Source: an uncultured Ruminiclostridium sp.
GTDB taxonomy: Bacteria; Bacillota; Clostridia; Oscillospirales; Ruminococcaceae
Direction of reading: 5' to 3'
NCBI GenBank assembly: GCA_949878745.1
Contig: CATLBH010000019.1
Coordinates: forward strand, 1-50,415
DNA: 50,415 bases
In this document: positions 2,691-50,062 of the stretch, piece after piece
How positions within the stretch are numbered: position 1 is the first letter of the stretch
Layout of the letters: each line of letters opens with the position of its first letter
Program-made: the position numbers and the translations under genes
The notes under the pieces: generated by a model
Seen by the model: only the letters and a program-made list of their open reading frames with translations
What the model was told of the DNA's origin: nothing
Database searches by the model: none

Positions 2691-2696
2691 CTAAAA

Positions 2697-30795: not shown

Positions 30796-30959
30796 ATACT
30801 AATTATAGCTACTTGTTAAGTATGAAAAAGCTTTTAAAAAGCAAATTTATCAACTATTGTTTCAGAAAGTATTTTATTTTTATTAAAGTAAATAAAATAA
30901 GCTTTAATTTTGGCGTTTCTGCCATTGACATTTTATTATATACTTGTTATAATTAGTAT
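30796..30959. repeat. Inverted-repeat element with ATACTAATTATA ends
   Basis: Ends ATACTAATTATA (30796-30807) and TATAATTAGTAT (30948-30959) are exact inverted copies. Inside is TATTTTATTTTTATTAAAGT / AAATAAAATA. The ATACTAAT terminus is shared with the palindromes at 33969, 39897, 45387, 45913 and 50004. No gene lies inside. Confidence 0.6.
30925..30953 (+). promoter_or_regulatory. Consensus promoter inside the inverted-repeat element
   Basis: TTGACA (30925-30930), 17-bp spacer, TATAAT (30948-30953) that overlaps the element's right end. The next gene rightward is the TlpA-like lipoprotein at 31318. The intervening 30960-31317 holds only a GCCGCG/CGCGGC palindrome (31143-31181) and no supported gene, so this may provide its promoter with a ~360-base leader. 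Confidence 0.6.
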
Positions 30960-31317
30960 TATGCGAAGTTGTTATATTTTTTATAATAAAGCTTTTGTTT
31001 TGGCTTAAACTGATTCTATCGGTTGTAAAAATTTAAATTTTTTATAAATCCGAATACAACGTCATAGCATAACAATATACACCAAGCCTTGAAAAATACC
31101 ATTGTTTATGATAGAATATACTTATAGCAATTCAAAAAATACCGCGGCACATATCGGCAATTCAAATCACTTTAGCCGCGTTGTCCTTCTCGCCGGGCGC
31201 TGGCCCGATTTTGTCGTCCGACTTGATACGCGCGATTTGCTCTTGACGCTGTATGCCGCGTTATTTCCTTGGATTGCTAAGGTCATCACTTAAAATAAAG
31301 AACAGAAGGTAGAATTT

Positions 31318-31947
31318 ATGAAGTACAATAAAATCCTTTCGATAGCAGCGGCGGCCGTCCTTATTGCCGCGATATTTACCGCTTGCGCGGCAAAAAAGGC
31401 GGACGAAACCAACCTTGGGGAAAACGGCGCGGCTTCCGCATTGGAACAAGGCAATGCTCCCGAAAAAGAAAGCGCACCCGAAAACAAAAGCGGAATCACC
31501 AGCCCCAACAGCTTTAACGCCGTAACCTTGGACGGCGGCGAGTATACCTCCGACAGCTTTTCTGAGGCGGACGTGACCGTTATAAACATATGGTCCACCA
31601 CCTGCGGCCCCTGCATAAGGGAAATGCCCGAAATAGCGGAGTATGTTAAAACGCTTCCCGACAACGTTAAGCTTATCACATGGTGCCTTGACGGCGCTTA
31701 TGACGAAGAGTACACAAAGGAGCTTCTTTCCTCGTCGGGCTATGAGGGGATAACGCTTACGGGAGGGGACGGCGATCTTGAAAAAATGTATAACGATATA
31801 ATGTATACCCCCACCACCCTCTTTGTGGACAGCGATGGGAACATTGTGGGCGAGGCTCTTATAGGAAGTCCCAAGGATCTGGCGGGAACCTATACCGAGC
31901 TTATCAATAAAACCCTTAAGGCTCTCGGAAAGGAAGAAATGGAATGA
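31318..31947 (+). CDS. TlpA-like thioredoxin-fold lipoprotein
   Basis: 209 residues. A lipoprotein signal (residues 1-22, lipobox FTAC) and a charged linker (about 25-60) precede the thioredoxin-like domain with STTCGPCIREMPEIAEY, whose CGPC is the redox site. It would reduce or exchange disulfides at the outer face of the membrane. It overlaps the next small gene by four bases and forms a three-gene redox cassette with it and the polyferredoxin, which could supply electrons from inside. Confidence 0.9.
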   Translation: MKYNKILSIAAAAVLIAAIFTACAAKKADETNLGENGAASALEQGNAPEKESAPENKSGITSPNSFNAVTLDGGEYTSDSFSEADVTVINIWSTTCGPCIREMPEIAEYVKTLPDNVKLITWCLDGAYDEEYTKELLSSSGYEGITLTGGDGDLEKMYNDIMYTPTTLFVDSDGNIVGEALIGSPKDLAGTYTELINKTLKALGKEEME

Positions 31948-32090
31948 CAAGGAGGGGGAGAAATGTTCTTCGGATTTGCTGTTTGTCGGCGGGCATAGTG
32001 CTTACGGCGGCGGGAATTTGGCGCGGAGAGGCTTCGGAAGTGCTTGACAAGGCGGTGAGGATATGTCTGGAATGTATAGGAATAGGTTAA
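31944..32090 (+). CDS. 48-residue CXXC membrane peptide (CD1871A-like)
   Basis: Starts at ATG 31944 within the TlpA stop (ATGA). One membrane helix (about 8-26) is followed by GEASEVLDKAVRICLECIGIG, ending with a CLEC motif right at the C-terminus. This layout and the ICLECIGIG ending match the small CXXC-containing proteins (CD1871A type) found with TlpA-like and 4Fe-4S proteins in Clostridia. It probably relays redox equivalents between the two neighbours; this is inference. The polyferredoxin gene begins 28 bases before its stop. Confidence 0.85.
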   Translation: MTRRGRNVLRICCLSAGIVLTAAGIWRGEASEVLDKAVRICLECIGIG

Positions 32091-32977
32091 AGCCAAGCCC
32101 GAAGGAGGTTAAGCACAACCGTTTCAGAACGCTTGTGCAACTTCTGGCGGCGGCGGTTATAAACGGTTACGCCGCGGGATTTATCGGGGGAAAAATATTC
32201 ACGGGCAGGAGCAAAATGCTTTGCGTTCCCGTTCTTAACTGTTACTCCTGTCCCGGGGCTCTCGGAGCTTGTCCCATAGGCGCGCTTCAGGCGGTGGCGG
32301 GAGGGAGAAGACACAATGTTTCCTTTTACGCGCTGGGTACGCTTATGCTGTTCGGCACGGTGCTGGGACGGTTAATCTGCGGTTTTCTCTGTCCCTTCGG
32401 TTTTGTGCAGGATCTGCTGCACAAAATACCTTTGCCTAAAGTAACCGTTCCGAAAAAGCTTGACAGGGCGCTTCGCTTTTTGAAATATGCAATCCTTGTC
32501 TTTTTTGTGCTGCTTTTACCCGTCCTTGCGGCAAATCGGTTCGGGGTAGGCGATCCTTGGTTCTGTAAATATATTTGTCCGGCGGGGACGCTGGAAGGGG
32601 GGATTCCGCTTTTACTGATGAACGAGGGGCTTCGGAAAGCGGCGGGGATTTTGTTTTCATGGAAAATGGGGGTGCTTGTGGCGGTTATATTGGGTTCCGT
32701 GTTTATCAACCGCTTTTTTTGCCGCTATCTTTGTCCTTTGGGGGCATTTTACGCTTTGTTTAACCGCTTCGCTTTTTATCGAATGAGTGTGGATAAGGAA
32801 AAATGCGTGGGGTGCGGGAAATGCGAGGAGGTGTGTCCTATGGCTGTGAGGGTCAGAGAGAATATTAACTGTGGGGAATGTATACGCTGCGGAAAATGCG
32901 GGGCGGCTTGTCCGACGGGGGCGATAAGCGGGGGGATTGGAGAAAAAAGGGGTGGAAAAACTAAAAGCTGTAGTTAA
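32063..32977 (+). CDS. 4Fe-4S polyferredoxin membrane protein (NapH/YccM-like)
   Basis: 304 residues. Several membrane helices (about 27-45, 88-110, 135-158, 195-215) alternate with CGFLCPFGFVQDLL, CKYICPAGTLEGG and CRYLCPLGAFYALF loops. Two ferredoxin motifs near the end, CVGCGKCEEVCP and CGECIRCGKCGAACP, bind two [4Fe-4S] clusters. Such proteins carry electrons across the membrane. Start is ATG 32063 with a GGTGAGG site inside the preceding small gene. The cassette probably drives extracytoplasmic thiol reduction. Confidence 0.92.
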   Translation: MSGMYRNRLKPSPKEVKHNRFRTLVQLLAAAVINGYAAGFIGGKIFTGRSKMLCVPVLNCYSCPGALGACPIGALQAVAGGRRHNVSFYALGTLMLFGTVLGRLICGFLCPFGFVQDLLHKIPLPKVTVPKKLDRALRFLKYAILVFFVLLLPVLAANRFGVGDPWFCKYICPAGTLEGGIPLLLMNEGLRKAAGILFSWKMGVLVAVILGSVFINRFFCRYLCPLGAFYALFNRFAFYRMSVDKEKCVGCGKCEEVCPMAVRVRENINCGECIRCGKCGAACPTGAISGGIGEKRGGKTKSCS

Positions 32978-33023
32978 AGCAGGTTTGGGAAAAGAACTTT
33001 TTGATTAAAAGGGGGGATGTTTA

Positions 33024-33068
33024 ATACTATTTTCAAATTATCCAATCTTTTTAATTTGAAAATAATAT
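33024..33068. repeat. Solo palindrome of the ATACTATTTTCAAATT type
   Basis: ATACTATTTTCAAATTA (33024-33040) pairs with TAATTTGAAAATAATAT (33051-33068). The same hairpin forms one half of the bipartite elements at 39897 and 45913. It lies 46 bases after the polyferredoxin stop. Confidence 0.7.
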
Positions 33069-33100
33069 TTGTATTACAATCTCATATTAAGTCAAAAATA

Positions 33101-33136
33101 AAAATAAGAGGCAGCCGAGACTGCCTCTTTATTTTT
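33101..33136. terminator. Terminator of rpmF, possibly bidirectional
   Basis: Arms AAATAAGAGGCAG and CTGCCTCTTTATTT around a six-base loop; A and T tracts on both sides. Confidence 0.85.
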
Positions 33137-33140
33137 AAAC

Positions 33141-33323
33141 TTACGCTTCGTGAGCAATAACTTCCCTGCCTTTGTAATAACCGCAGTTGGGACAAACCTT
33201 ATGAGGAGATTTCAACTCTCCGCAATTGGTGCAGCGGGAAAAAGCGGGTGCGTTTAATTTCCATACTTGTCCGCGTCTCTTGTCGCGTCTTGCTCTTGAT
33301 ACTTTTCTCTTCGGAACTGCCAT
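33141..33323 (-). CDS. rpmF: 50S ribosomal protein bL32
   Basis: 60 residues from ATG 33323 (MAVPKRKVSRARRDKRRG) with an AGGTG site. The four zinc cysteines are present (CTNCGE, CPNCGYY). It is a single-gene unit with its own promoter and terminator. rpmF is often beside fab genes in other bacteria; here it is not. Confidence 0.97.
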   Translation of the reverse strand: MAVPKRKVSRARRDKRRGQVWKLNAPAFSRCTNCGELKSPHKVCPNCGYYKGREVIAHEA

Positions 33324-33398
33324 TATTTGCACCTCCCTCTATATTCAAAATAATTAACTCAGTTTAAAGCAAAATAACTGAATTTAAACACGAGAATT

Positions 33399-33427
33399 AT
33401 TATAACATACCTGTGGCCGTTTGTCAA
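33399..33427 (-). promoter_or_regulatory. rpmF promoter
   Basis: Minus strand TTGACA (33422-33427), 17-bp spacer, TATAAT (33399-33404). It sits just beyond the stop of the P-loop gene. Confidence 0.88.
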
Positions 33428-33444
33428 TACTTGTTGTAAAACTT

Positions 33445-33846
33445 TTACAGATATTTTTTGATGGCTTCGGGAAGGGTGTCCACATCAGCCGATATGGTGA
33501 ATACAACGTTCGTGTTTTCACTTATCGCCGCTATCCTGTCAAACATTTCTCCGACTTTGTCATAATCTCTGCCCACAATTCTGAGTACGCCGTCAACAAA
33601 TATATCGGTGCAGTCGTAATCGGAAGCGAGTATTCCGGCGATAAAGCCGTAAAGATCGTCGTAATCGGATATTTTAAAGTCCTCGATATTTATCAGGCGG
33701 ATCTTGTGATAAATGTCGATGTTCAAAGAGGAACCGATTTGAATCGCAACAACGTTGCCCTTGCTCTCTTTTTCCGCCTTGTGGATCGCTTCGATTAAGA
33801 TCTTGGTTTTGCCTGAACCTTTTTTGCCGGGTATAAGTCTGATCAT
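33445..33846 (-). CDS. Small P-loop protein of unknown function
   Basis: 133 residues. Walker A GKKGSGKTKILIEA is at residues 7-20; a hydrophobic strand DIFVDGVLRI (about 85) could supply the Walker B aspartate. The rest is alpha/beta with no further domain. Homologues in Clostridia are annotated as ATP-binding or hypothetical proteins. A CGGAGGA site precedes the ATG. It follows pgi by about 180 bases in the same direction. Confidence 0.72.
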   Translation of the reverse strand: MIRLIPGKKGSGKTKILIEAIHKAEKESKGNVVAIQIGSSLNIDIYHKIRLINIEDFKISDYDDLYGFIAGILASDYDCTDIFVDGVLRIVGRDYDKVGEMFDRIAAISENTNVVFTISADVDTLPEAIKKYL

Positions 33847-33968
33847 AGTGTTGTCCTCCGTATTTGACCGCGGGGTTTGTTTTAAATAAAAGCAATCTCC
33901 GCAATTTTTATTTTCGGGGCGGCTCCGAAAGCCAAGCGGCGGCCGCCCGAAATTTCTTTAATATGCCC

Positions 33969-34023
33969 AATATTAATCTTCGGTCGGATTACAGACAAAA
34001 AATGTCGGCCAAAGATTAGTATT
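33969..34023. repeat. Palindrome of the ATACTAATCTTTGGTC type, at the pgi stop
   Basis: Arms ATATTAATCTTCGGTCGG and CGGCCAAAGATTAGTAT around a CAGACAAAAAATG loop. It closely matches hairpin 1 of the element at 45387-45438 and the nested copy at 47710-47754. Three bases separate it from the pgi stop codon at 34027. The flanking 33847-33968 holds no gene that I can support. Confidence 0.8.
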
Positions 34024-34026
34024 AAA

Positions 34027-35364
34027 TCAGGAAAGCTTTGCTTCAAGCTCGGCCTTCCGAGCTTCGTATCCGGGCTTGCCCAACAGGGCGAACATATTTT
34101 TCTTATAGCTTTCCACACCGGGCTGATCAAAGGGATTTACTCCCAACAAATAGCCGGAAATCGCGCAGGCCTTTTCAAAGAAGTAAATCATATAGCCCAA
34201 CTCAAACTCGTTTAGCTGAGGCACCTCAAGCACCATATTGGGAACTCCGCCCTCGGTATGAGCCAGAACGGTTCCCTCAAAGGCCTTGCGGTTAACCACG
34301 GACATATTCTGTCCCGAGAGGAAGTTGAGCCCGTCGCCGTTTTCCGCGTCGTCCTTAAGGAAAAATTCCTTTTGGGGCTTATCGAACTGTACTACCGTTT
34401 CAAACAGTACCTTGGAGCCGTCCTGAATGAATTGGCCGAGAGAGTGGAGATCGGTGGAGAAGGTGGCGGAGGTGGGGTAAATTCCCTTTCCGTCCTTGCC
34501 CTCGCTTTCGCCGAAAAGCTGTTTGAACCATTCGTTCATCATGGCGAAGCTGTTTTCATAGGCTACCAGCATTTCCGCCTTAAAGCCTTTGCGGTAAAGA
34601 ATGTTTCTTGCGGCCGCATATTTGTAGCAGTCGTTCTTTTCTATATCGGGATCGCAAAGCTCCTCCTGAGCCGTTTTGGCGCCCTTCATAAGCGCGTCGA
34701 TATCACAGCCGGCACAGGCTATGGGGAGAAGACCCACGGCGGTGAGCACGCTGTATCTTCCGCCTACGTCGTCGGGGATAACGAAGGTTTCGTAGCCGTT
34801 TCTGTTGGAAAGCTCCTTAAGGGTTCCTCTCGCCTTGTCGGTGGTGGCGTAGATTCTGCCTTTGGCTCCTTCGGCTCCGTATTTCTGCTCCAACATTTCG
34901 CGGAACACTCTGAAGGCCAGCGCGGGCTCGGTGGTGGTGCCTGACTTCGAGATCACGTTTACGGAAAAATCCCTTCCTTCCACAAGGGAAATAACCTCGG
35001 AAAGGTAGGTGGGACTGATGGAGTTGCCCACAAAGTATATTTCGGGAGTATCCTTTTTGAGAGAGTTGTAAAGGGTGGACTTAAGTGCTTCTATGGCCGC
35101 TCTCGCGCCCAGATAGGAACCACCTATGCCTATAACTATAAGCACCTCGCTGTCCTTTTTGATCTTTTCCGCCGCTTTTTTTATGCGTTCGAACTCTTCC
35201 CTGTCATAATCGGAGGGGAGAGTCACCCAGCCGAGAAAATCGTTGCCCAAACCGGATTTTTCGCTGAGGGTTTTATGAGCAGTTTCAACTGAGGAAGCGA
35301 TACCTTTGTATTCGTTTTCTCCAACAAACTGCCTTAAATATTTATCGTTGAGTTTAACTGCCAT
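34027..35364 (-). CDS. pgi: Glucose-6-phosphate isomerase
   Basis: 445 residues, the shorter Firmicute form. Signatures include [34 protein letters not shown], and late [14 protein letters not shown] and [19 protein letters not shown]. It interconverts glucose-6-phosphate and fructose-6-phosphate. An AAAGGA site precedes the ATG; a clear promoter lies upstream and a palindrome abuts the stop. Confidence 0.97.
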
Positions 35365-35416
35365 TTTCGACCGTCATCCTTTCGTTTTAGTGTCGTTCTT
35401 GTGTTTTCTTTTTATA

Positions 35417-35445
35417 ATTATACCTTTTTTTAAAATTTTTTGCAA
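35417..35445 (-). promoter_or_regulatory. pgi promoter
   Basis: Minus strand TTGCAA (35440-35445), 17-bp spacer, TATAAT (35417-35422). The leader is about 45 bases. Confidence 0.75.
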
Positions 35446-35518
35446 GATGTTTCAGGTGTTTAATATCATTTTAGCATTTTTTACAAATAATATGTGCCGA
35501 ATTTGTATATTTTTTAAT

Positions 35519-36727
35519 TCAAAATTCAATCAGCCCCTTTAAGACAAATTCAAGGCTTTTAAAAAAAGTGAGTTTTTCGGAACTTTCTTCAGCCGTGACC
35601 TTGGCTATAAACAAAGTGTCTTCCTCAAGAAGGACGATTATTTTTCCCACGCTGTCTCCCGAGGTCACCGGAGCCTTTACAATGGGCTTTATATTGTAAA
35701 GATAGGTCACCGAAGCGCTTTTTCCCTTGGGGATAAGACAGCAAAGCCCGGACTCAGCGCGTACGGATACTGTTCTTAAAACGCCTTCCTCAACGGCGAT
35801 ATCGGTTAATTCCTCCGGATCGAATTCGGGGTAAAAGAGCTCGAATTCGTTAAAGCCGTAATCCAGCAGCGCTTCGGCAATGTCAAACCTTCCCTCGTCG
35901 GTTTCCGCCCCCAGAACCACTGCCACCAGCTCCATATCCCCCCGCTTCGCCGTGGCGGTAAAGCAGTAGCCCGCGTTATCGGTGGTGCCAGTTTTCAGTC
36001 CCGTGATGCCTTCATACTCCAAAAGGCGGTTGGTATTCAGAAGCTGGGTTTCCCTTCCGGTTCCTTCCCTCACATAAGTAAGGCGGGTAAGGAGGAATTC
36101 GTCGTAATAATCGTATTTTCTGAGCGCCGAAGCCATTTTCGCAACGTCAGCGGCGGAGGAATAGTGATTGTCGGCGTCTAGTCCGGTACAGTTTACAAAA
36201 TGGGTATCGGTCATTTCCAGCTCGGAGGCTCGTTTGTTCATTCTTTTAACGAATTCCTCCTCGCTTCCCGCTATATGCTCTCCGAGAGCCACGCAGGCGT
36301 CGTTGGCGCTGCTTATTACCACCGAGCGGCATATGTCGTAAACGCTCATCTGTTCCCCCTCGTTAAGCCATATTACCGACCCGTCCATGGAAAAAGCGTG
36401 ATAGGAAGCGGTGATGGTATCCTCGAAGCTGAGCCGTCCCGCTTTCATTTCCTCCGCGGCTATGAGAAGGGTCATTATTTTCGTTACGCTGGCTATCGGT
36501 AGCTTCTCGTCGGGATTCTGGGAGTAAAGCACCTGTCCCGTGGCGGATTCGGTGAGCACCACCGATCTGGCTCTGAACGCGGCTCTCGACTCGTCTTTTT
36601 TTTCTTTTTCGTTCGTCTGTGCGCTAACGTCCGTTATTCCCGACATACATACAACCGAAGCCGCCGTTACCGTCAAAGCGGCGGCAGCGGAAAAAAGCCT
36701 CGCGCCTATCCCTTTAAAAGCTGTCAT
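35519..36727 (-). CDS. D-alanyl-D-alanine carboxypeptidase (DacA/PBP5 type)
   Basis: 402 residues. A signal peptide (about 1-35) leads to the serine peptidase S11 domain with SxxK (ASVTKIMTLL), SxN (VISSANDACVALGEH) and KTG (TGLKTGTTDNAGYC). A beta-rich C-terminal domain (about 300-395) positions it on the wall. It trims the terminal D-alanine of the peptidoglycan stem. There is no clear C-terminal amphipathic anchor helix beyond FKSLEFVLKGLIEF, which may serve. An AAGGAGA site precedes the ATG. Confidence 0.95.
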   Translation of the reverse strand: MTAFKGIGARLFSAAAALTVTAASVVCMSGITDVSAQTNEKEKKDESRAAFRARSVVLTESATGQVLYSQNPDEKLPIASVTKIMTLLIAAEEMKAGRLSFEDTITASYHAFSMDGSVIWLNEGEQMSVYDICRSVVISSANDACVALGEHIAGSEEEFVKRMNKRASELEMTDTHFVNCTGLDADNHYSSAADVAKMASALRKYDYYDEFLLTRLTYVREGTGRETQLLNTNRLLEYEGITGLKTGTTDNAGYCFTATAKRGDMELVAVVLGAETDEGRFDIAEALLDYGFNEFELFYPEFDPEELTDIAVEEGVLRTVSVRAESGLCCLIPKGKSASVTYLYNIKPIVKAPVTSGDSVGKIIVLLEEDTLFIAKVTAEESSEKLTFFKSLEFVLKGLIEF

Positions 36728-36825
36728 TTTCTTAATCTCCTTAAAATTGATATCTACCCATAATTTATGTATAACAAGTCCGTTAAATGCGTAAGCTAAT
36801 TGAAAAATGAAAGGATAATTTATAT

Positions 36826-37308
36826 ATGATCAAACCGAGATCGCCTTTTCTTAAGGAAATCATAAAGCTTACGCTGCTTTTTCTGATGGGTGGAATGATA
36901 TATTTCGCCATTGAAATAGCCTATAAGGGAGACAGCCACTTTTCTATGTTCATAACGGGAGGGGCGGCGTTTTTGCTTATAGGGGGGATAAATTGTTATT
37001 TTGACCGGAATATGCCCCTTGTTTTTCAAATGCTGTGCAGCGCGGTAATAATAACTCTTTTGGAATTTATAAGCGGAGTTATAGTCAATCTGTGGCTTCA
37101 TCTGAACGTTTGGGATTACAGCGGTATTCCGCTGAACGTTTTGGGACAGATCTGTCCGCGGTTTTTCTTTATATGGTTTTTTATTTCACTGGCGGGAATT
37201 TTTCTGGACGATTTTTTCAGGTGCAGAATGTTCGGAGAAAAAATGCCCGAGTATGTATTGTTTCGGAGAAAAAGGGGAAGAGAGAGTCTTTATCATATTT
37301 TCAAATAA
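36826..37308 (+). CDS. CmpB-like putative ABC-transporter type IV membrane protein
   Basis: 160 residues with four helices (about 12-32, 40-56, 63-88 and 108-128). The pattern LEFISGVIVNLWLHLNVWDY followed by PLNVLGQICPRFFFIWFF is typical of the family called putative ABC-transporter type IV (CmpB-like). Function is unknown despite the name. A GAAAGGA site precedes the ATG; it is divergent from dacA with a 98-base gap. Confidence 0.82.
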   Translation: MIKPRSPFLKEIIKLTLLFLMGGMIYFAIEIAYKGDSHFSMFITGGAAFLLIGGINCYFDRNMPLVFQMLCSAVIITLLEFISGVIVNLWLHLNVWDYSGIPLNVLGQICPRFFFIWFFISLAGIFLDDFFRCRMFGEKMPEYVLFRRKRGRESLYHIFK

Positions 37309-37348
37309 AAAAGTCCGAACTCGCCTTTCGCGGCGCGGTTCGGACTTT
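37309..37348. terminator. Terminator between converging genes
   Basis: Arms AAAGTCCGAAC and GTTCGGACTTT. A six-T run follows on the minus strand, so it chiefly ends the leftward chemoreceptor gene. Confidence 0.8.
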
Positions 37349-37383
37349 ACGGGAGAATTTTTACTTTTTTGTAATATCGCCTG

Positions 37384-39366: not shown

Positions 39367-39415
39367 AGCAGTACCTCGGCTTCTTTAATACTTGGAAATC
39401 CGCGATCTTATGACA

Positions 39416-39444
39416 ATTGTAACACATTGCACATATAAAATCAA
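39416..39444 (-). promoter_or_regulatory. Promoter of the first chemoreceptor gene
   Basis: Minus strand TTGATT (39439-39444), 17-bp spacer, TACAAT (39416-39421). Confidence 0.7.
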
Positions 39445-39542
39445 CGCTTTTTTCGATTTTCGTAGCAACGCATATGAAAGTCGTCTCTCTTTTGACATTT
39501 CTCACGAAAAAGGCATATATCAAAAAAAATTGCAAAAAGTAC

Positions 39543-39571
39543 TTGATTTTTTATTTAACATCTGCTATAAT
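39543..39571 (+). promoter_or_regulatory. rpmB promoter
   Basis: TTGATT (39543-39548), 17-bp spacer with TGC before the -10, TATAAT (39566-39571). Confidence 0.82.
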
Positions 39572-39616
39572 TAGATGGTATTTGAAATATATACTTTGAA
39601 AAGGAGGTGTTCACCC

Positions 39617-39805: not shown

Positions 39806-39837
39806 TCTTCTGAGGCAAGATATATCCGCATAGAAAC

Positions 39838-39865: not shown

Positions 39866-39896
39866 TTTTATATTTCAAATTCATTAAAGATGCTTT

Positions 39897-39997
39897 ATAC
39901 TATTTTCAAATTAAAAAGATTGGATAATTTGAAAATAGTGCTTCGGGTGTAATTTAATCTTAAAAAAGTTAGAACCTTTTTAAGATTAAATTAGTAT
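39897..39997 (+). repeat. Bipartite palindromic element (two hairpins with linker)
   Basis: Hairpin 1: ATACTATTTTCAAATT/AATTTGAAAATAGTG (39897-39940). Linker: GTGCTTCGGGTGTAAT. Hairpin 2: AATTTAATCTTAAAAA/TTTTTAAGATTAAATT then AGTAT (39950-39997). The same arrangement in the other orientation is at 45913-46025. It ends 15 bases from the cardiolipin synthase stop. Confidence 0.8.
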
Positions 39998-40012
39998 TAG
40001 CTGTTTAGTTTC

Positions 40013-41578: not shown

Positions 41579-41607
41579 ATTGTTATCCGTATTTTTTCGT
41601 AATCTAT

Positions 41608-41651
41608 TAAAGGACTGTGAACCCGTTTTGCCGAAATCACAGTCCTTTAAA
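41608..41651. terminator. Hairpin between the second chemoreceptor and cls
   Basis: Arms TTAAAGGACTGTGA and TCACAGTCCTTTAA around a 16-base loop. The T-run after it is poor, so it may be an RNA-stability hairpin rather than a full terminator. It lies 69 bases past the chemoreceptor stop. Confidence 0.5.
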
Positions 41652-41719
41652 GTGATTGAAATGACCGTCAGATATTAAACCAGAGGTATATATTGCTTTA
41701 ATATATACGAATAGTATTT

Positions 41720-43675: not shown

Positions 43676-43762
43676 AGGTATTGCCTCCTATTGGGGATTT
43701 TACATTAAAACTTTATATAATGTGAAGAAATTTTAGTGAAAAACCCAGATTTATTTATAAGT

Positions 43763-43791
43763 AGTATACCACAAAAAATACAAAAAATCAA
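43763..43791 (-). promoter_or_regulatory. Promoter of the second chemoreceptor gene
   Basis: Minus strand TTGATT (43786-43791), 17-bp spacer ending TGTGG, TATACT (43763-43768). Confidence 0.72.
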
Positions 43792-43950
43792 TAAAATATC
43801 AAAAATTTAGGATAGATTTTTGAAAAAAATTTGAAAATAAGGTGAAAAATACCTTTGTAAGCCTATTTGCGAAATATTTGTCAGATATAAGACAAATTTG
43901 TAAAAACAGCGCATTCAACATACAGAAACCTGTTCCAATATATTTTTCTC

Positions 43951-43979
43951 TTGACAAAACTAACCAAAAATGCTACAAT
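43951..43979 (+). promoter_or_regulatory. Promoter of the decayed solute-binding protein gene
   Basis: TTGACA (43951-43956), 17-bp spacer with TGC before the -10, TACAAT (43974-43979). Confidence 0.8.
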
Positions 43980-44010
43980 AAAACAAACCTCAAGAAAGGA
44001 AAATATCGTA

Positions 44011-45001
44011 ATGAATACCAAAAAGAAAATTCTGTCGGCAATTATGTGTGCTTCGCTGATCTTAACGTCGGCATGCGCGGGAGGGGAAGAAGGACTGGAA
44101 CACCTTCAAGTAACTTACCGCCAAATGGGTGGACAAAAACCCCGGTGAAAACGAAGGCTTAAGAGGCAACAAGTGGATGGGTCTTATGTTCGCCAACACC
44201 ACGGGCGTTAAAATGATTGACGTTACCGATTCGGATATCGTAAACAATCTTAAGAACGAAAACATAGAGCGGGCCATGAGCTTTCTTTCCGAAATGAGAA
44301 AGGAAGGGCTTATAGGCGACGGATATATCGATCCGGGTACGGCGTTTATGAACGGAAACCTGCTGTTCCTTGCCATGGAATCCGAATGGACCTTTGAAAG
44401 CGCACAGTCGGCGGTGTTCACCTACGGTCTGGAGGGCGAGATAGTTACATTGCCCATGCCTAAGGATCCCATGTCCGATAAGTACTATGTTTCCGCCGAC
44501 ACCTACGGTTATATGGTTCCCGCTGGCACAAAGAACGTTCAGGGCGGCGTCGACTGGATACTGGCAAGCCGCATTTACGAGACCGACCCCGAAACTAAGG
44601 CGGCGGACTATGCTTTGAAAACCGATCCCAGCCCCGTTTATTACGATAAGTGTCCGGGGTGTAAGTACGATTATATTTCCAACGACAAGGCCGACCTCAC
44701 CGTTTGCCCCGAATGTCAGACGGCGAGAAAGCAAAAGTTCAAGGCGGTATACACGGTGGAACAGCTGGATCTTCTGGACGATATGCTTCATTCGGATAAG
44801 TTTGAAAGAGTGTTCGACAACGCCATGGGGGTTGACCAGGGAATAGTGGATATAATGACCTCCACCGACAATGCGCTTATTGACGGCGTTACCTATCACG
44901 ACGCTTCCTATACGGAGGAGCTTAATAAGCAGTATCAGGCGATTGAAGCGTTTATACAGCCTTACAGGGACGCTTTGACCAAGGCTAAGGCGGAAGGCTG
45001 A
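44011..45001 (+). pseudogene. Extracellular solute-binding lipoprotein, internally deleted and frameshifted
   Basis: ATG 44011 (site AAGAAAGGA) encodes a clear lipoprotein signal (MNTKKKILSAIMCASLIL..., lipobox TSAC). After ACAGGEEG the sequence jumps, in a different frame, into the middle of a solute-binding protein: DWNTFK, then an in-frame TAA (44108-44110), then LTAKWVDKNPGENEG and a long open stretch to 45001. About 100-150 residues of the N-terminal lobe are missing. The remaining part has FMNGNLLFLAMESEW and YMVPAGTKNVQGGVDWI, as in sugar-binding proteins of ABC importers. It also has CPGCKYDYIS...CPEC, a rubredoxin-like zinc ribbon unusual in this family. A GTG at 44129 could start a soluble fragment. 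No ABC permease is near. Confidence 0.85.
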
Positions 45002-45030
45002 TACTTTCCGTTAAGTTTCGCTTATGCCCT

Positions 45031-45268
45031 TTAGAACCTGTCCGCATAGGAATTGGCACGCGTCTTTTCGGCAGATTTTGCCGATGACAGCGTTTCGTCA
45101 TTTGCTTTGCTGTCGGCGCGTCCTTGCGCCGACTTTGGGCAAATGACCGAACACCTCGTGTGTTAAAATTTCTTGACTTGCGACAGCAAGCCGGTGAAAT
45201 TTTGCCTTGTTCTTAACAAAATCTGCTCGAAAATCCACGCACCATTCCTATGTGGACGGGTTCTTTAA
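45031..45268. repeat. Cruciform element with terminal inverted repeats, copy 1
   Basis: Ends TTAGAACCTGTCCGCATAGG and CCTATGTGGACGGGTTCTTT (read inward) pair. A central stem GTCATTTGC/GCAAATGAC contains GTCGGCGCG/GCGCCGAC, and a third stem joins AAAATTTC/GAAATTTT. The whole folds as a branched structure. The copy at 47638-47880 shares the ends, CGTGTGTTAAAA, TTTGCCTTGT and TGCTCGAAAATCC. No gene lies inside. Confidence 0.8.
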
Positions 45269-45279
45269 ATTCACAATAA

Positions 45280-45338
45280 AATACTTCCGAACAAATTGCC
45301 GATTATTTCGGCGAAAATCCGTTCGGAAGTATTTTTTT
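45280..45338 (+). terminator. Strong terminator after the pseudogene region
   Basis: Arms AATACTTCCGAAC (45280-45292) and GTTCGGAAGTATT (45321-45333) with an inner GCCGA/TCGGC stem, followed by TTTTTTATTTTTT. Confidence 0.85.
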
Positions 45339-45386
45339 ATTTTTTGGGAGCAGTAATCCAGAAAACTGCCCTCCTCGGAATGTTTT

Positions 45387-45503
45387 ATACTAATCTTTGG
45401 TCAGATTATAGACAAAAAAATGTTGACCAAAGATTAGTGTTTTGGGTGTAATCTTTAATCATATTTCCGATTTCGTCTACAATATGATATAAGATTGGTA
45501 CTA
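45387..45503 (+). repeat. Bipartite palindromic element ending in a stop codon
   Basis: Hairpin 1: ATACTAATCTTTGGTCA/TGACCAAAGATTAGTGT (45387-45440). Linker GTGTTTTGGGTGTAAT. Hairpin 2: AATCTTTAATCATAT/ATATGATATAAGATT (45450-45495), ending GGTACTA. Its last bases (CTA at 45501-45503) are the stop codon, read on the other strand, of the leftward membrane protein gene. The right hairpin resembles the element at 50004. Confidence 0.75.
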
Positions 45504-45866
45504 CCGAACCCCCAGTTCCAATACCAAATAATAATGGTGTATAAAAACCGCCGCCAAGATAACATTAAACGCAATGCTCCCAATCATATAAGGAAGCCGC
45601 GCCTTTCTTCGATTCAAAAGCGTAGCCGTAAGGAACCCCGTCCAGGTACAGCTGACGATGAGCGCACCCATTATTATACACATCTCGGTAACAAAGTTAA
45701 GCTTGGCCTTCAGCAAAACCACTGCCGTAAATCCCACCAGCGCGTTAACCGCGGGCAGTACCGCAAGCGGCAAGGTAGCCACCGCCCACTTTTTTCTCTT
45801 GGCCCTGAAAAGACTTGCCGACGCTATTAACAGCAAGCCCGTGATTATAAAGCTCTCGCCTATCAT
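45501..45866 (-). CDS. Hypothetical four-helix membrane protein
   Basis: 121 residues, almost all hydrophobic, with helices at about 4-20, 27-50, 57-80 and 92-113. Short basic loops (RAKRKK; NRRKAR) suggest cytoplasmic sides. A GGGGTG site precedes the ATG. No family was recognised; it is not a known small transporter by any motif I can see. Its stop codon falls in the end of the palindromic element at 45387-45503. Confidence 0.7.
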   Translation of the reverse strand: MIGESFIITGLLLIASASLFRAKRKKWAVATLPLAVLPAVNALVGFTAVVLLKAKLNFVTEMCIIMGALIVSCTWTGFLTATLLNRRKARLPYMIGSIAFNVILAAVFIHHYYLVLELGVR

Positions 45867-45912
45867 AAAAATTCACCCCTTTGACACCGAAAATGTGTTA
45901 AGAAATCTGTTA

Positions 45913-46025
45913 ATACTAATTTCATCTTAAAAAGGTTCTAACCTTTTTAAGATGAAATTACACCCAAAGCACTATTTTCAAATTATCCACTAAATTTTGC
46001 AATCTTTTTAATTTGAAAATAGTAT
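45913..46025 (-). repeat. Bipartite palindromic element, inverted relative to 39897
   Basis: In plus-strand order: ATACTAATTTCATCTTAAAA / TTTTAAGATGAAATTA hairpin, linker ACACCCAAAGCAC (reverse of GTGCTTTGGGTGT), then CACTATTTTCAAATTA / TAATTTGAAAATAGTAT hairpin with 18 extra bases in its loop. It ends three bases from the stop of the next gene (46029). Confidence 0.8.
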
Positions 46026-46028
46026 AAA

Positions 46029-46508
46029 TCAGCCCTTAAGCTTTTCGTCAACGATCTCCTTGGCTCTGCCGTTGTCCGACAAAGCGATGTACACCGCGTA
46101 ATTTCCCTTTGAATATATCTCGGCCGTTTCAAGCTTATACATTTCATCGGGTGTATATGTGGCGAAAGACTCCTTTCGGGAATCCAGCTTCGACTGAAGC
46201 GCTTCCTCCGCCGTTTTGGCCGCGTCGGAGCTTTTAAATTTGAACACCCCTATTTCGTCGGGAAGCGCGCCAGAGCCGCAAAGGGAAAATGCGGCGGAAT
46301 CAAGCTCCGCGGTATCCATTCCGCTGTAATAGCTCCCCACGTCCTCGGTGCCTTTTTCCACCGATGAGGAAATGGGCACCTCCGCCAGCACCGCGCTCAC
46401 AACGTCGGCGGGGTTTACGTCTGCGGCGGCTTCTCCGCCCTCGCCGCTGCACGCCGTAAAGAGCATTACGGGGGTCAATACGGCGCAAAGTAAATTTTTA
46501 ATCTTCAT
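46029..46508 (-). CDS. DUF4358-type lipoprotein
   Basis: 159 residues from ATG 46508 with an AAAGGAAAG site. Lipoprotein signal (1-20, lipobox FTAC). The rest matches the DUF4358 pattern: DEIGVFKFKSSDAAKTAEEA and TAEIYSKGNYAVYIALSDN near the end. In Clostridia these lipoproteins commonly sit beside SGNH hydrolase and MBOAT acyltransferase genes that modify surface glycans; here the SGNH gene is directly upstream, 30 bases away. Function is not established. Confidence 0.85.
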   Translation of the reverse strand: MKIKNLLCAVLTPVMLFTACSGEGGEAAADVNPADVVSAVLAEVPISSSVEKGTEDVGSYYSGMDTAELDSAAFSLCGSGALPDEIGVFKFKSSDAAKTAEEALQSKLDSRKESFATYTPDEMYKLETAEIYSKGNYAVYIALSDNGRAKEIVDEKLKG

Positions 46509-46537
46509 TTTTGTCTTTCCTTTCTTATTGTTTCTTT

Positions 46538-47425
46538 TTATCCAATCTGCTTCTGTATGGTGCCCAGCAATAAAGCGTAAGCGCTGCCTTGGAAATGAAG
46601 TCCGTCGTTCTCGGCGTACTTTGAGGAGAAGTAGCCTTCTCCGTCCGTCAGCTTGGAGCAGATATCCACATATGTATACCCACCTTGGTCGCAAATTGAC
46701 TTTAACCTTGAGTTATAGTCGTTTATCTTTTCCATAGTCTCTTTTCCCTCCGAGTCGTGCTCCTTGGTGACGGGGGGAAGGGATATAACGCATATCTCGG
46801 CGGTATAACAAGCCATTTCAAGCTCGGAAACAAGTTCCGTCATTTTATTGGCCATATACTCGGCGTCCATATACGCGAGTCCGTTGGTGCCCAGCATAAT
46901 ATAAATACGCTTCGGCTGCATTGCGGAGGCCTTTTCAACGCATGTCACATCTCCCACCTTGTGGTTTACGGCGCTTTCGGGGTTAAGCCCCACTTCGGCA
47001 AAAACGTTTTCCGCGTCAAGATAACCGTATAAGTGAAGTCCAGTGGATATACTGTCCCCGATGAACAGGTCGTTTTCAAAGAAAGTTCTGTCATACTGAG
47101 GAAGTATAAGATCATCCGTGGAAATGGTCTCTTCCGTTTCGGCTGCGGAATCTTCGGAGCTTACCGACGCGCTTTCGGAGGCTGAGGTATCGGAGCTTGT
47201 CCCGGAAGTTTCCGAGGTGTTCGGCGGGGTTAACGATTCGCTTTCGGAAGGGGAAGAGGTATCCGTTTCCGAGACGGTAACGGATGGGCGGTCGGTGCGG
47301 TCGCTGCCGGAGTCCTCCTTCATATGAAAGTATATTAAAACGATAAGCAGGATAATTATTCCCACTATTACCAAATTTAAAGCGACTATCGCGATGGACA
47401 GGCTGTTTTTTCTCTTTTTGGCCAA
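46538..47425 (-). CDS. Membrane-anchored SGNH/GDSL hydrolase
   Basis: 295 residues from a TTG start (LAKKRKN...) with an AAAGGAGA site. One N-terminal helix (about 10-32) and a Ser/Thr/Glu-rich stalk (about 40-100) lead to the SGNH domain: block I FIGDSISTGL, Asn of block III in LGTNGLAYMD, and DGLHF with the catalytic Asp-His near the end. It probably adds or removes acyl groups on extracellular glycans. It forms an operon with the DUF4358 lipoprotein. No MBOAT partner is in the window. Confidence 0.92.
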   Translation of the reverse strand: MAKKRKNSLSIAIVALNLVIVGIIILLIVLIYFHMKEDSGSDRTDRPSVTVSETDTSSPSESESLTPPNTSETSGTSSDTSASESASVSSEDSAAETEETISTDDLILPQYDRTFFENDLFIGDSISTGLHLYGYLDAENVFAEVGLNPESAVNHKVGDVTCVEKASAMQPKRIYIMLGTNGLAYMDAEYMANKMTELVSELEMACYTAEICVISLPPVTKEHDSEGKETMEKINDYNSRLKSICDQGGYTYVDICSKLTDGEGYFSSKYAENDGLHFQGSAYALLLGTIQKQIG

Positions 47426-47517
47426 GACGGTTTCTCCTTTGTTATTTTTTGCTTCATTCCGATTGAAAATTAATAGGTTCTTACATATTATTTACCGAAT
47501 ATTAACATCAATTATAC

Positions 47518-47546
47518 ATTATACACTTTTAAGGGGAAATAGTCAA
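47518..47546 (-). promoter_or_regulatory. Promoter of the SGNH-DUF4358 operon
   Basis: Minus strand TTGACT (47541-47546), 17-bp spacer ending AGTG, TATAAT (47518-47523). The leader is about 85 bases. Confidence 0.85.
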
Positions 47547-47585
47547 GATTTTTTATTTCATTGTCATTATTTCTTAAGATTTATG

Positions 47586-47622
47586 CCAAAAGGGGTCCGT
47601 TTTTTGGCTTTCGGCCCCTCTT
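47586..47622 (-). terminator. Possible terminator of the LytTR-kinase operon
   Basis: GGGGCCG/CGGACCCC stem with one bulge, framed by A- and T-rich tracts, 250 bases past the kinase stop. The T-run on the minus strand is short (TTTT). Confidence 0.5.
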
Positions 47623-47637
47623 TTTAGAGCATTTTTA

Positions 47638-47880
47638 TTCAGAAACTGTTCCAATAGGAATAGGCGCACGTCTTTTCGGCATATTTTGCCGCTGACTTGC
47701 GTTTAGTCATTTGGTCAACATTTTTTGTCTATAATCTGACCAAAGATTAGTATAACACATCGTGTGTTAAAAATCCTTGACGGGCTTATCGCGTAAGCTG
47801 CCCGCCTGCGGATTTTTGCCTTGTCATCAACATAATATGCTCGAAAATCCGCACACCATTCCTATTGGAACAATTTCTTA
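47638..47880. repeat. Cruciform element with terminal inverted repeats, copy 2
   Basis: Ends CTGTTCCAATAGGAAT and ATTCCTATTGGAACA pair perfectly. Differences from copy 1 (45031) in these arms are compensatory. It shares CACGTCTTTTCGGCA, CGTGTGTTAAAA, TTTGCCTTGT and TGCTCGAAAATCC. Its middle, the GTCATTTGC stem of copy 1, is replaced by a smaller palindrome (47710-47754). The right end supplies the stop codon of the kinase gene (TTA at 47878-47880, read on the minus strand). Confidence 0.8.
47710..47754 (-). repeat. Small palindrome nested in the cruciform element
   Basis: TTTGGTCAACATTTTTTGTC followed by TATAATCTGACCAAAGATTAGTAT-type sequence is the reverse complement of hairpin 1 at 45387-45440, but lacks the outer ACTAATC of one arm. 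Confidence 0.75.
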
Positions 47881-49254
47881 AGTCGATTGTTTTTTCTCCC
47901 CGTGGGTGTTATCGAGGCTAAGCATCACCGAGGAATAAAACACGTTTTCCTCATTTCTGAAATCCGCCCCGCCTCCGTATTTTGCGGCAATATCCGAAAG
48001 GCTTGAAAGACCAAGCCCCCTGTGCTCCGATTTTGTGGAGAGATATTTTTCTCCGCTTTTTTTCACCGTTCCGTTAAAGCCGTTATCGACGGTAACGGCC
48101 AGCATTTTTCCTGAGCATATCATATTAAGCTTTATCATACGCTTTTCCCCGAGAGCCGACTGAGCCGCGTCCAGGGCGTTTTCAAGAAGATTTCCCAACA
48201 ATACCGACAAATCGATATCCTGTATCGGAAGGGAGCCGGGCACCTGGATATGCGCGTTAAAGAGGATGTCCCGCTCCTTAGCCATATCTCCGTAGTGGCT
48301 TGCCAGAAGGTTTATTACGGGATTATCGCAGTATTTTGTTATGCTCCGGGTTTCCGAGTGTTCAAGATACTGCTTTAAATACAGTATAGCTTTTTCCTTT
48401 TCGTCTTTTTCCAAAAGCTCGCACAGCAAAACCATATGGTGACGTATGTCGTGGCGCTGGCGGCGGACGTTTTCTATATTTTCGCTGATCCTTCGGTACT
48501 GCTCGTCGCGGATATCTATCTGATGCTTTGTTTCAAGATACTTTTCGTTTGACGCGTACCGCTCGTAAGCAAGGCGGTACATTCTGAAAATCACCCCGTA
48601 GAGCACGAATGCGGACAAAAGGAGGCCGAAATAAAGCAGGAACGACGTGGGATCCGCCACCAGATCCACATAATCCATAAAAGTAAACACGATGACGAAA
48701 ATCATCAGCAGTATAAGCAGCGGAATACAAAGATACCCGCACTCCTTTGCCCCCATTCTCTTTTCCACAGGCATATAAAATAATTTCAGGAAAAGACACA
48801 GCAAGGGCACCGTTATCGCTCCCGCCGATAAGGTGGACAGTATCGTATGAAGACCGGCGGTAATCCGCTTAGCCTCCACCGGGAGAAGCTCGAGTACACA
48901 GTTGGCGATGGACATTATAAACAGAGCGCTGGTCAGCGAGAACAGAAAAATAAAGGCCTTTTTCTGCCACACCGCCCTTACCGCGTAAAGATACCAGGCC
49001 ATACAAAATATCATTATGACGTAGAACACCATATCCAGCTGTACCGATATGGGCTCTTCCTCAGGTATAGTAAAGCTGATATACACGCTGATCGCCGAAT
49101 CAATGACGGATACCGCAAAAATAACCAACAGCGTCAGAAAAGCGGTTTTTTTGTTTGAAAAACGGAAGGAGCCCATAAAAGGGTAGGCGCATAAAACGGC
49201 AAAAACGGTAATTCTTACGATATCGTCCGCCAGAAGCCAGAAAAAATCCGTCAA
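47878..49254 (-). CDS. AgrC-like sensor kinase with GHKL ATPase domain
   Basis: 458 residues from a TTG at 49254 with an AGGGGGG site eight bases upstream. Six or seven helices (about 8-240) form the sensor, followed by a short coiled stretch, the H-box RRQRHDIRHHMVLL (about 265-278, His in DIRHH), N-box LLGNLLENALDAAQ and the G-box SEHRGLGLSSLSDIAAKYGG. This is the HPK10 class that detects peptides or other membrane signals. It starts three bases after the regulator gene, so it is co-translated. No AgrB/AgrD peptide genes are visible. Confidence 0.93.
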   Translation of the reverse strand: MTDFFWLLADDIVRITVFAVLCAYPFMGSFRFSNKKTAFLTLLVIFAVSVIDSAISVYISFTIPEEEPISVQLDMVFYVIMIFCMAWYLYAVRAVWQKKAFIFLFSLTSALFIMSIANCVLELLPVEAKRITAGLHTILSTLSAGAITVPLLCLFLKLFYMPVEKRMGAKECGYLCIPLLILLMIFVIVFTFMDYVDLVADPTSFLLYFGLLLSAFVLYGVIFRMYRLAYERYASNEKYLETKHQIDIRDEQYRRISENIENVRRQRHDIRHHMVLLCELLEKDEKEKAILYLKQYLEHSETRSITKYCDNPVINLLASHYGDMAKERDILFNAHIQVPGSLPIQDIDLSVLLGNLLENALDAAQSALGEKRMIKLNMICSGKMLAVTVDNGFNGTVKKSGEKYLSTKSEHRGLGLSSLSDIAAKYGGGADFRNEENVFYSSVMLSLDNTHGEKKQST

Positions 49255-49257
49255 AAT

Positions 49258-49977
49258 TTATTCCCCCCTCGCAAGATGGAACAAAAAGCTCTGATACCGC
49301 TCTCTGAGCTCCGTTTTGTTATTCCGCGACAGCGTTATCTCTTTACCGTTGCGCAGCACTATGCGATCGAAAAAGAAGGAGTCTATGTAGTGCATATTTA
49401 CTGCGAAGCTCTGCTGTATTCTCAGGAATATTCCGTCGTCAAGAAGAGTGCAGAGTGTGCTCAGAGAAGTGTGGGTATCAATGCGTTCCTTATCGGTGTG
49501 TATCATACAGAGCTTGTTTTTTACCTCTATATACCTTATTTTATCTATGGGAATCGGTACGGCTATTTTTCCGGATTTTATCTCAAGCACGCGGGCTTTT
49601 TTCGGAGGCTTCGGTATACAGCGGCGTATAGCCTCGGTTATGACTTCATCTCCCGCAGGCTTTAAAAGATAGTGAGCCGCGTTAAGGGCGAACGCCTCTA
49701 TAGCGTGATCAGTGCTTACGGTCATAAAAATGAAGCGGCAGGATTTGTCGGGACTTAGGCTTTTGGCGGTTTCTATGCCGCTTATGCCCTCTAAATAAAC
49801 GTCCATAAAGGCGATGTCAAAGCGCTGTACGGCGTTGGCGGCGAGAAATTCCTCGCCGGAAAAAAAGGGACAGAGCCGCCCCGAAATGTTCATACGGGAG
49901 CATACATTCCCTATCCGTTCCGTAAGCTCCTTCAGCTCCTCTTCATTGTCGTCCACCACGGCAATATCAAACCACAC
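49258..49977 (-). CDS. LytTR-family response regulator (AgrA-like)
   Basis: 239 residues from GTG 49977 (six bases after AGGGGGA); a GTG two codons earlier is only two bases from that site. The receiver domain (about 1-120) has DDNEEE, the phospho-aspartate in IAFMDVYLEG and the lysine in YLLKPAGDE. The LytTR DNA-binding domain (about 135-235) has IRYIEVKNKLCMIHTD and IQQSFAVNMHYIDSF. LytTR proteins bind pairs of direct repeats about two helix turns apart upstream of promoters; such a pair lies 215-250 bases away at 50194-50229. Confidence 0.94.
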   Translation of the reverse strand: MWFDIAVVDDNEEELKELTERIGNVCSRMNISGRLCPFFSGEEFLAANAVQRFDIAFMDVYLEGISGIETAKSLSPDKSCRFIFMTVSTDHAIEAFALNAAHYLLKPAGDEVITEAIRRCIPKPPKKARVLEIKSGKIAVPIPIDKIRYIEVKNKLCMIHTDKERIDTHTSLSTLCTLLDDGIFLRIQQSFAVNMHYIDSFFFDRIVLRNGKEITLSRNNKTELRERYQSFLFHLARGE

Positions 49978-50003
49978 GGACACTCCCCCTTGTTCAACAT
50001 TTT

Positions 50004-50062
50004 ATACTAATTGCAAATCATTCCAAATTTCAATTTGTCTACAGTATGACTTAAAATAGTAT
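50004..50062. repeat. ATACTAAT-ended palindrome upstream of the LytTR operon
   Basis: ATACTAATTGCAAATCATT at 50004 and TAAAATAGTAT at 50052-50062 form an imperfect inverted repeat. Its middle (TTTGTCTACAGTATGA) resembles TTCGTCTACAATATGA in hairpin 2 of the element at 45387-45503. It occupies the expected promoter region of the regulator gene. Confidence 0.6.

What the first reader, a model, noticed from the sequence alone, without database searches (positions are those of the whole stretch)
30796..50062. Family of small palindromes, several bipartite with a common linker
At least seven intergenic palindromes (30796, 33024, 33969, 39897, 45387, 45913, 50004, plus one nested at 47710) share ATACTA.../...TAGTAT ends but have different stems. 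Three are bipartite: two unrelated hairpins joined by almost the same linker, GTGCTTCGGGTGTAAT (39937), GTGTTTTGGGTGTAAT (45437) and, inverted, ACACCCAAAGCAC (45961). Hairpins appear to be mixed and matched: the TTTTCAAATTA stem occurs alone at 33024 and as half of 39897 and 45913. That looks like a modular, recombining element rather than a plain terminator or a classical MITE. They are absent from 1-30 kb.
Basis: seen in the sequence. Interest (0 to 1): 0.75.

Follow-up and report, generated by a model that had tools for sequence, protein, structure and literature searches.

The report
Two-hairpin miniature transposons with fixed linker
The palindromes are roughly 90-115-letter jumping DNA elements, each made of two hairpins joined by an almost unchanging short linker, scattered through the spaces between genes and most likely moved by a transposase of a known type that sits elsewhere in the same genome.

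Summary
The genome holds 140 linker copies (<=1 mismatch; reversed control 0). The units are MITEs, 91-114 bp in the own genome: TNA, TACTA, hairpin 1, 10-nt spacer (GYTTHGGGTG), hairpin 2, TRGTA, TNA. Flanking 3-mers are identical in 36 of 42 own copies (22.4 expected) and 48 of 62 in relatives (24.2 expected). Six usable paralogous empty sites and one element nested in another show insertion with a 3-bp duplication. A scan ignoring the linker found 27 two-hairpin units in 445 kb; all 27 hold the linker with 10 nt between hairpins. The probable mover is a resident IS630-family IS: all nine own-genome IS ends found abut TNA and some hairpin classes resemble its ends. Hairpin mixing is rare: 116 of 126 doubles fall in six recurring pairings, with one clear chimera. 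Lone hairpins look like internal deletions. Unusual: the two-hairpin build, the fixed linker, co-varying stems without RNA-strand bias, and a TNA target where studied IS630 elements use TA.

The parts
39895..39897 (.). left target duplication TTA of the class-B double element
39898..39996 (+). class-B double-hairpin element (99 bp): hairpin 1 39899-39939, 10-nt spacer, hairpin 2 39950-39993
39938..39953 (+). conserved linker GTGCTTCGGGTGTAAT (the 10-nt spacer proper is 39940-39949)
39997..39999 (.). right target duplication TTA
45388..45500 (+). class-A double-hairpin element (113 bp); left flank TTA, right flank CTA (one base off); right end TGGTA
45437..45452 (+). conserved linker GTGTTTTGGGTGTAAT
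45911..45913 (.). target duplication TAA
45914..46024 (-). class-B double-hairpin element (111 bp), inverted relative to 39898
45957..45972 (-). conserved linker GTGCTTTGGGTGTAAT
46025..46027 (.). target duplication TAA
33025..33067 (-). single hairpin, class-B hairpin 1 (reads inverted); right end decayed to TAATA, flanks TAA/TTT
33971..34021 (+). single hairpin, class-A hairpin 1 with a TAGTA right end; flanks CAA/TTA
47710..47752 (-). truncated class-A hairpin 1; its TAGTA right end abuts TAACACATCGTG, apparently the same site of another repeat that a class-C double occupies at C8:39145 (and, with a decayed right end, at C1:78507)
50005..50061 (-). single, class-D hairpin 1 (reads inverted), decayed stem, flanks TTA/TTA
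30797..30958 (.). possible simple MITE with TACTAATTATA / TATAATTAGTA ends, 162 bp; flanks TAA/TTA do not match; low confidence

Best explanation
These are non-autonomous transposons (MITEs). A resident IS630-family transposase most likely binds the outer ends (TACTA... and, in some classes, a subterminal motif such as TATAGACAA about 20 nt in), cuts the element out and inserts it into TNA, which is duplicated. Each half of a double element is an end-like sequence followed by its own inverted copy, so it forms a hairpin. The two inner copies of the end are altered (TAGTG and TGYAAT instead of TAGTA and TACTAAT), so that only the outermost pair should act as ends; a 10-nt spacer, GYTTHGGGTG, separates the hairpins. 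Single-hairpin forms are probably internal deletions between short direct repeats of the two halves. SHOWN: architecture, copy number, TSD, paralogous empty sites, nesting, intergenic bias, a resident IS with TNA-flanked ends, end likeness for class F and a shared motif in classes A and D. INFERRED: that this IS moves them, that the inner ends are inactive, that singles arise by deletion, and that the linker is kept because the transposase complex or a host factor needs it.
For: TSD: 36 of 42 own (expected 22.4; 0 of 10,000 permutations reach it) and 48 of 62 in relatives (expected 24.2, 0 of 10,000). Empty sites: of 103 joined-flank queries 9 passed the filter, 6 usable. Nested insertion in L026: a class-C double inside hairpin 2 of a class-A double with TTA duplicated. 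Linker-free scan: 27 of 27 carry the linker (<=3 of 18 mismatches), spacing 10 nt in all, reversed control 0. IS: own-genome 35-36-aa C-terminal pieces at 7 contig ends and a 140-aa N-terminal piece; family assigned on relatives: G012 piece PF13358 41.8 bits, G001 C half PF13358 83.7 bits and NF033545 140.9 bits against a cutoff of 100, N half 51.6, below it. Nine of nine own IS ends found (7 right, 2 left) abut TNA, read directly. End likeness beyond the first 7 nt: class F 22/27 and 21/27 to the two IS right ends (best of 200 shuffled sets 19). TATAGACAA at offset 19 with 0-1 mismatch in 23 of 25 class-A (with its E variant) and 4 of 5 class-D left ends, as in the G000 and G001 IS left ends. 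Single C1:88526 reads as hairpin 1 of class B joined at TGAAA to the end of hairpin 2.
Against: No intact IS copy with both ends on one contig was found, so the IS's own duplication is unproven. End likeness is not above the shuffles for the two left ends (G000 best 19/27, G001 to class D 20/27; shuffle maxima 20 and 20), nor for classes B and C against any IS end tested. The G017 IS left end lacks TATAGACAA. Studied IS630-family elements duplicate TA, not TNA (PMC2170065 passages). G016, with 115 linkers, and G008, G049 and G055 have no transposase hit (G016 is 76% complete). Of 6 genus genomes with the transposase, 3 have no linker elements.
Confidence: 0.78

Rival explanations
1. MITEs moved by another transposase that also uses TNA (for example an IS5-type enzyme); the IS630 end likeness is partial convergence.
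For: TNA is not the target of the studied IS630 elements. Classes B and C do not match the IS ends tested above shuffles. That some IS5-type elements use TNA is recalled, not tested. Other transposase families were not searched for in the genome.
Against: Nine of nine own IS630 ends found abut TNA and share TACTA plus subterminal sequence with classes A, D and F. Among 109 TACTA-ended, TSD-flanked segments in the loci held at that stage I saw no transposase ORF in the rows printed, judged by eye.
Confidence: 0.14
2. The hairpins are functional RNA structures (processing sites, small RNAs or terminators) whose stems co-vary under selection on RNA.
For: 96-97% of hairpin-2 stem cells are Watson-Crick, with several pair types at most positions.
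Against: Non-Watson-Crick cells show no strand preference: 15 G.T against 17 A.C in the first 14 pairs of 126 doubles, where RNA selection would favour G.U on one strand. No clear excess between convergent genes: 12 of 38. No Rfam match at gathering scores in the window.
Confidence: 0.05
3. Single-strand transposons of the REP/BIME or IS200/IS605 type, with hairpins recognised by a Y1 transposase.
For: A hairpin at each end and inverted pairs with linkers resemble BIMEs (recalled).
Against: Those families make no target duplication (recalled); here a 3-bp duplication is seen in 36 of 42 and 48 of 62 copies and at empty sites. Y1 transposases were not searched for.
Confidence: 0.02

Closest known systems
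RUP of Streptococcus pneumoniae, proposed to be moved by IS630-Spn1 (PMC2229807 and PMC3049150, passages)
   Same: About 107 bp, about 108 intergenic copies, non-coding, TIRs resembling a resident IS630-family IS, some insertions into other mobile elements.
   Different: RUP insertions are described at TA dinucleotides, with 9 contiguous bp of TIR; the passages I saw describe no two-hairpin build and no linker. The duplication here is TNA. Sequences were not compared.
BIMEs (paired REP sequences), Enterobacteria (recalled)
   Same: Two palindromic units joined by recurring linkers, intergenic, many copies.
   Different: No target duplication and a Y1 transposase (recalled); here there is a 3-bp duplication and DDE-type ends.
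Double-hairpin elements of fungal mitochondria (search listing only; description recalled)
   Same: Mobile units made of two hairpins.
   Different: Organellar, no IS partner known to me; sequences not compared.
Chunjie MITE of Geobacter uraniireducens (PMC10969869, passages)
   Same: Intergenic bacterial MITE with many size variants and partial copies.
   Different: 178-235 bp; the passages describe no double hairpin.

Membership tests
MITE (non-autonomous DNA transposon) | Short, non-coding, many dispersed copies | tested here: met
   140 linkers genome-wide; 91-114 bp in the own genome, 66-120 bp with relatives; 37 of 38 outside open frames
MITE (non-autonomous DNA transposon) | Terminal inverted repeats | tested here: met
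   42 of 69 own linker-like sites have TACTA and TRGTA (<=1 mismatch, as the search required) at the outer feet of paired arms; 27 units against 0 in reversed sequence in the linker-free scan
MITE (non-autonomous DNA transposon) | Target site duplication and empty sites | tested here: met
   36 of 42, 48 of 62; 6 usable empty sites, paralogous copies of host repeats
MITE (non-autonomous DNA transposon) | Ends shared with a resident autonomous element | tested here: met
   Above shuffles for class F; shared motif and spacing for A and D; not above shuffles for B and C
IS630-family mobilised element | IS630 transposase in the same genome | tested here: met
   Own-genome pieces; family assigned on the G012 and G001 relatives
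IS630-family mobilised element | 2-bp TA target duplication | tested here: not met
   3-bp TNA, including TGA..TGA; the TA rule is from PMC2170065 passages
IS630-family mobilised element | Movement in trans by that transposase | not testable with these tools
   needs an experiment
RUP | RUP sequence in S. pneumoniae | not tested
   no sequence comparison made; different host and target
REP/BIME or IS200/IS605 derivative | No target duplication | tested here: not met
   duplications seen
Intrinsic terminator | Enriched between convergent genes | tested here: not met
   12 of 38 convergent; 26% of intergenic bases are convergent

The most novel reading that the evidence does not exclude
The two-hairpin fold and the invariant 10-nt linker are working parts: the transposase (or a host protein) recognises each half as a cruciform or foldback with paired outer and inner end copies, and the linker is a synapsis or host-factor site. 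This would be a transposition substrate with four end copies and a structural signal, used by an IS630 subgroup with a 3-bp TNA target, in which hairpin sequence is free to change as long as the arms match.
Probability: 0.2. Interest if true: 0.7.

Novelty: new variant of a known kind. Interest (0 to 1): 0.42.

Why it matters
Bacterial MITEs are usually described as a pair of ends around filler (my summary). Here the interior is constrained: unrelated stems that co-vary, around a spacer fixed in length and nearly fixed in sequence. With about 190 linker copies in one genome and several related genomes at different copy numbers, the family offers a natural mutagenesis set for asking what a Tc1/mariner-like transposase needs inside its ends, how hairpin arms stay matched at DNA level, and how an IS630-type enzyme might come to use TNA.

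Tried and rejected
First two end-finding scripts missed most right ends through errors of mine; their TSD counts are discarded. One search replaced them; 27 of its 69 linker-like sites were dropped because one or both ends were not found (chance matches in genes, truncated, interrupted or nested copies). A few of its rows and's are misread ends (for instance L049:14810, L012, L051, L158); they were left in the counts.

Six of them are in other phyla (Nostoc x2, Richelia, Balneolaceae, Vibrio, Cytophagaceae) and show no paired hairpins at the site by eye; about four chance matches are expected by my own estimate, so I rejected them. The single IMG/VR hit lies inside an ORF, without hairpins (L186); rejected. 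In one search, 12 of 99 genomes (own included) match, and only same-genus genomes have more than one match; the reversed-pattern control matched once each in G000, G001 and G055.

Autonomous copy: a search for TACTA-ended, TSD-flanked segments holding a transposase ORF gave 109 candidates, none of the printed ones a transposase by eye. A subterminal pattern with a spacing error of my own still led to the IS through relatives. An order-wide search of 245 genomes at E<=1e-20 gave nothing, but no genome known to match was shown among them, so that empty answer carries no weight. Plasmid tblastn gave 848 records, all below 60% identity.

Empty-site list: L015, L022 and L025 among the nine were rejected (own neighbourhood or poor alignment). 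In L005, one of the six kept, the empty copy differs at the target trinucleotide itself. One search stopped on a script error after printing the IS ends, and its pattern required TNA, so the 9 of 9 count rests on the sequences read; the comparison was rerun.

Literature: searches (listings; passages of four papers read: PMC10969869, PMC2229807, PMC3049150, PMC2170065) showed no description of a two-hairpin, linker-bearing MITE in these bacteria; that is a statement about those searches only.
Full report
OBSERVATION. The window is contig C19 of a 2.67-Mb genome in 108 contigs. The listed palindromes are present. Three are double elements (39898-39996, 45388-45500, 45914-46024 inverted), three are single hairpins (33025-33067, 33971-34021, 50005-50061), one is a truncated hairpin (47710-47752), and the 30796 item is the left end of a 162-bp unit rather than a small palindrome. 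The doubles fold into two separate hairpins with z-scores -9.2, -6.9 and -9.3; the 50005 single is decayed (z -0.77). GTGYTTYGGGTGTAAT occurs 140 times in the genome at <=1 mismatch and its reversed control 0 times; the wider pattern TAGTGYTTYGGGTGYRAT occurs 190 times, its control once.

ANATOMY. In the own-genome set (445 kb: window plus 20 stretches; and 30 short loci) the units read TNA-TACTA-hairpin 1-TAGT-GYTTHGGGTG-YRAT-hairpin 2-TRGTA-TNA. Of 69 linker-like sites (<=3 of 18 mismatches), 42 gave both ends; the flanking 3-mers are identical in 36 of 42 against 22.4 expected from the column frequencies, reached in 0 of 10,000 permutations. They are TAA (27), TTA (7) and TGA (2), so the repeat co-varies and is a real duplication. 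After pooling and removing repeats, 102 copies have matching TNA: TAA 69, TTA 27, TGA 6; TAA is preferred in the element's own orientation (p 2e-5, relatedness ignored).

To avoid circularity I scanned the 445 kb for TNA-flanked units with a hairpin at each end without using the linker: 27 were found, all 27 contain the linker, and the distance between hairpins is exactly 10 nt in all; reversed sequence gave 0. Class C, whose first stem is short, falls below that scan's threshold except once, so the test bears mainly on the other classes. The spacer is thus conserved across classes whose stems and loops differ.

CLASSES. Among 126 pooled doubles, hairpin 1 falls into 7 and hairpin 2 into 15 sequence clusters. 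Six recurring pairings hold 116 of 126 (68, 22, 10, 9, 4, 3), so halves travel together. One clear chimera (L096: hairpin 1 of class C with hairpin 2 of class F), one possible (L141) and one inverted loop (L025:2692) were seen. Own-genome counts in that pool: class A 22, C 15, B 9, others 9 of 55.

STEMS. Hairpin-2 stems are 96-97% Watson-Crick over the first 14-15 pairs with several pair types at most positions. Within class C (51 distinct copies) 872 of 918 cells pair, against a mean of 822 (maximum 839 of 1,000) when arms are dealt anew; relatedness inflates this. Exceptions are 15 G.T against 17 A.C in the first 14 pairs, so there is no sign that one RNA strand is under selection. Pairing is kept at DNA level, by need for a foldback or by arm-to-arm template switching; one inverted loop fits the latter. 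This choice is open.

MOBILITY. Joined flanks of 103 elements were searched against all loci held at that stage; 9 gave matches across the junction and 6 are usable empty sites, for instance C1:98027 with TGA against L040 and C1:212160 with TAA against L036. All six are paralogous: copies, in the same genome, of other repeats into which the elements had inserted; orthologous sites in sister strains were not examined. In L026 a class-C double sits inside hairpin 2 of a class-A double with TTA duplicated. In one search, 20 of the 58 G016 matches share the same first 80 nt by my count, about half of them at contig ends and so possibly counted twice, which suggests a recent burst. Of 38 doubles 37 lie outside open frames of >=100 aa although these cover 83% of the sample.

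THE MOVER. A subterminal pattern led to contig ends encoding DDE_3 transposases. A 99-aa piece from G012 finds 6 of 60 genus genomes, with 7 places in the own genome, all at contig ends as expected for a collapsed repeat; an N-terminal piece from G001 finds 3 of 60: own, G001 and G017. The G001 C half passes the IS630 cutoff, its N half does not. In G001 and G017 the frame breaks near the same run, TCAAAAAAATTAA, which suggests a programmed frameshift; this is inference. All nine own IS ends found (seven right, two left) abut TNA. The two types of IS right end match class F at 22/27 and 21/27 beyond the first 7 nt (best of 200 shuffled sets 19). Left ends are not above shuffles (G000 19/27, G001 to class D 20/27; maxima 20), but TATAGACAA lies at offset 19 in both and in 23 of 25 class-A left ends with <=1 mismatch; the G017 left end lacks it. 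Classes B and C are not above shuffles.

DISTRIBUTION. Of 99 genomes searched, own included, 12 hold at least one match; besides the own 190 the counts are G016 115, G001 91, G036 36, G008 29, G049 9, G055 8, and five genomes with 1 to 3; all with more than one match are in the same genus. Transposase and elements (>=8 linkers) co-occur in 3 genomes, transposase alone in 3, elements alone in 4, neither in 50 (Fisher p 0.017, phylogeny ignored). The named records with the element are Oscillospiraceae or Clostridia MAGs (capped list).

SINGLES. Of 43 hairpins listed, 26 are halves of linker-bearing elements; of the other 17, ten are single forms by my reading and seven unrelated. Seven of the ten have matching flanks, which fits both deletion inside a double and insertion as a single. 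C1:88526 is hairpin 1 of class B joined at the shared TGAAA to the end of hairpin 2, and class-A singles end as a deletion between the two AAAGATTAGT copies would leave them; hence deletion is favoured, inferred.

COMPARISON. RUP with IS630-Spn1 is the closest known case (passages of PMC2229807 and PMC3049150). What is different here is the two-hairpin build, the fixed linker and TNA. As the TA duplication of the studied IS630 elements (PMC2170065 passages) was tested and not met, I file the family as MITEs and call the IS630 link the probable mover, not a membership. Verdict: known kind, new variant; interest 0.42.

Noticed in passing
window 2693-3047 and 19326-19807: Another dispersed repeat of about 350-650 bp, about 77-86% identical to copies on C1, C4, C8 and C12; not identified.
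   Followed up: no
L047:16483-16739, L043:737-1013: A different repeat (GGAACCGCTGATTAA...TTAATCAG.GGTTCC) has inserted into double elements at the linker, with TTAG or CTAA on both sides; related repeats without the element served as two of the empty sites.
   Followed up: partly
L041:4961-5117, L110:367-523, L143:7599-7755, L160:1501: 157-bp simple MITEs with TACTA ends, TAA duplication and AGACAA-like subterminal motifs, apparently of the same IS group.
   Followed up: partly
L169 (rc 1225), L182:1980: IS630-type transposase genes of G001 and G017 both change frame near TCAAAAAAATTAA, suggesting a programmed frameshift.
   Followed up: partly
L169 (rc 1710): The G001 transposase gene is interrupted by another TACTA-ended element directly after TGA, at the contig end.
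   Followed up: no
window 45275-45338: An unrelated 23-bp inverted repeat ending in a T run, terminator-like.
   Followed up: no
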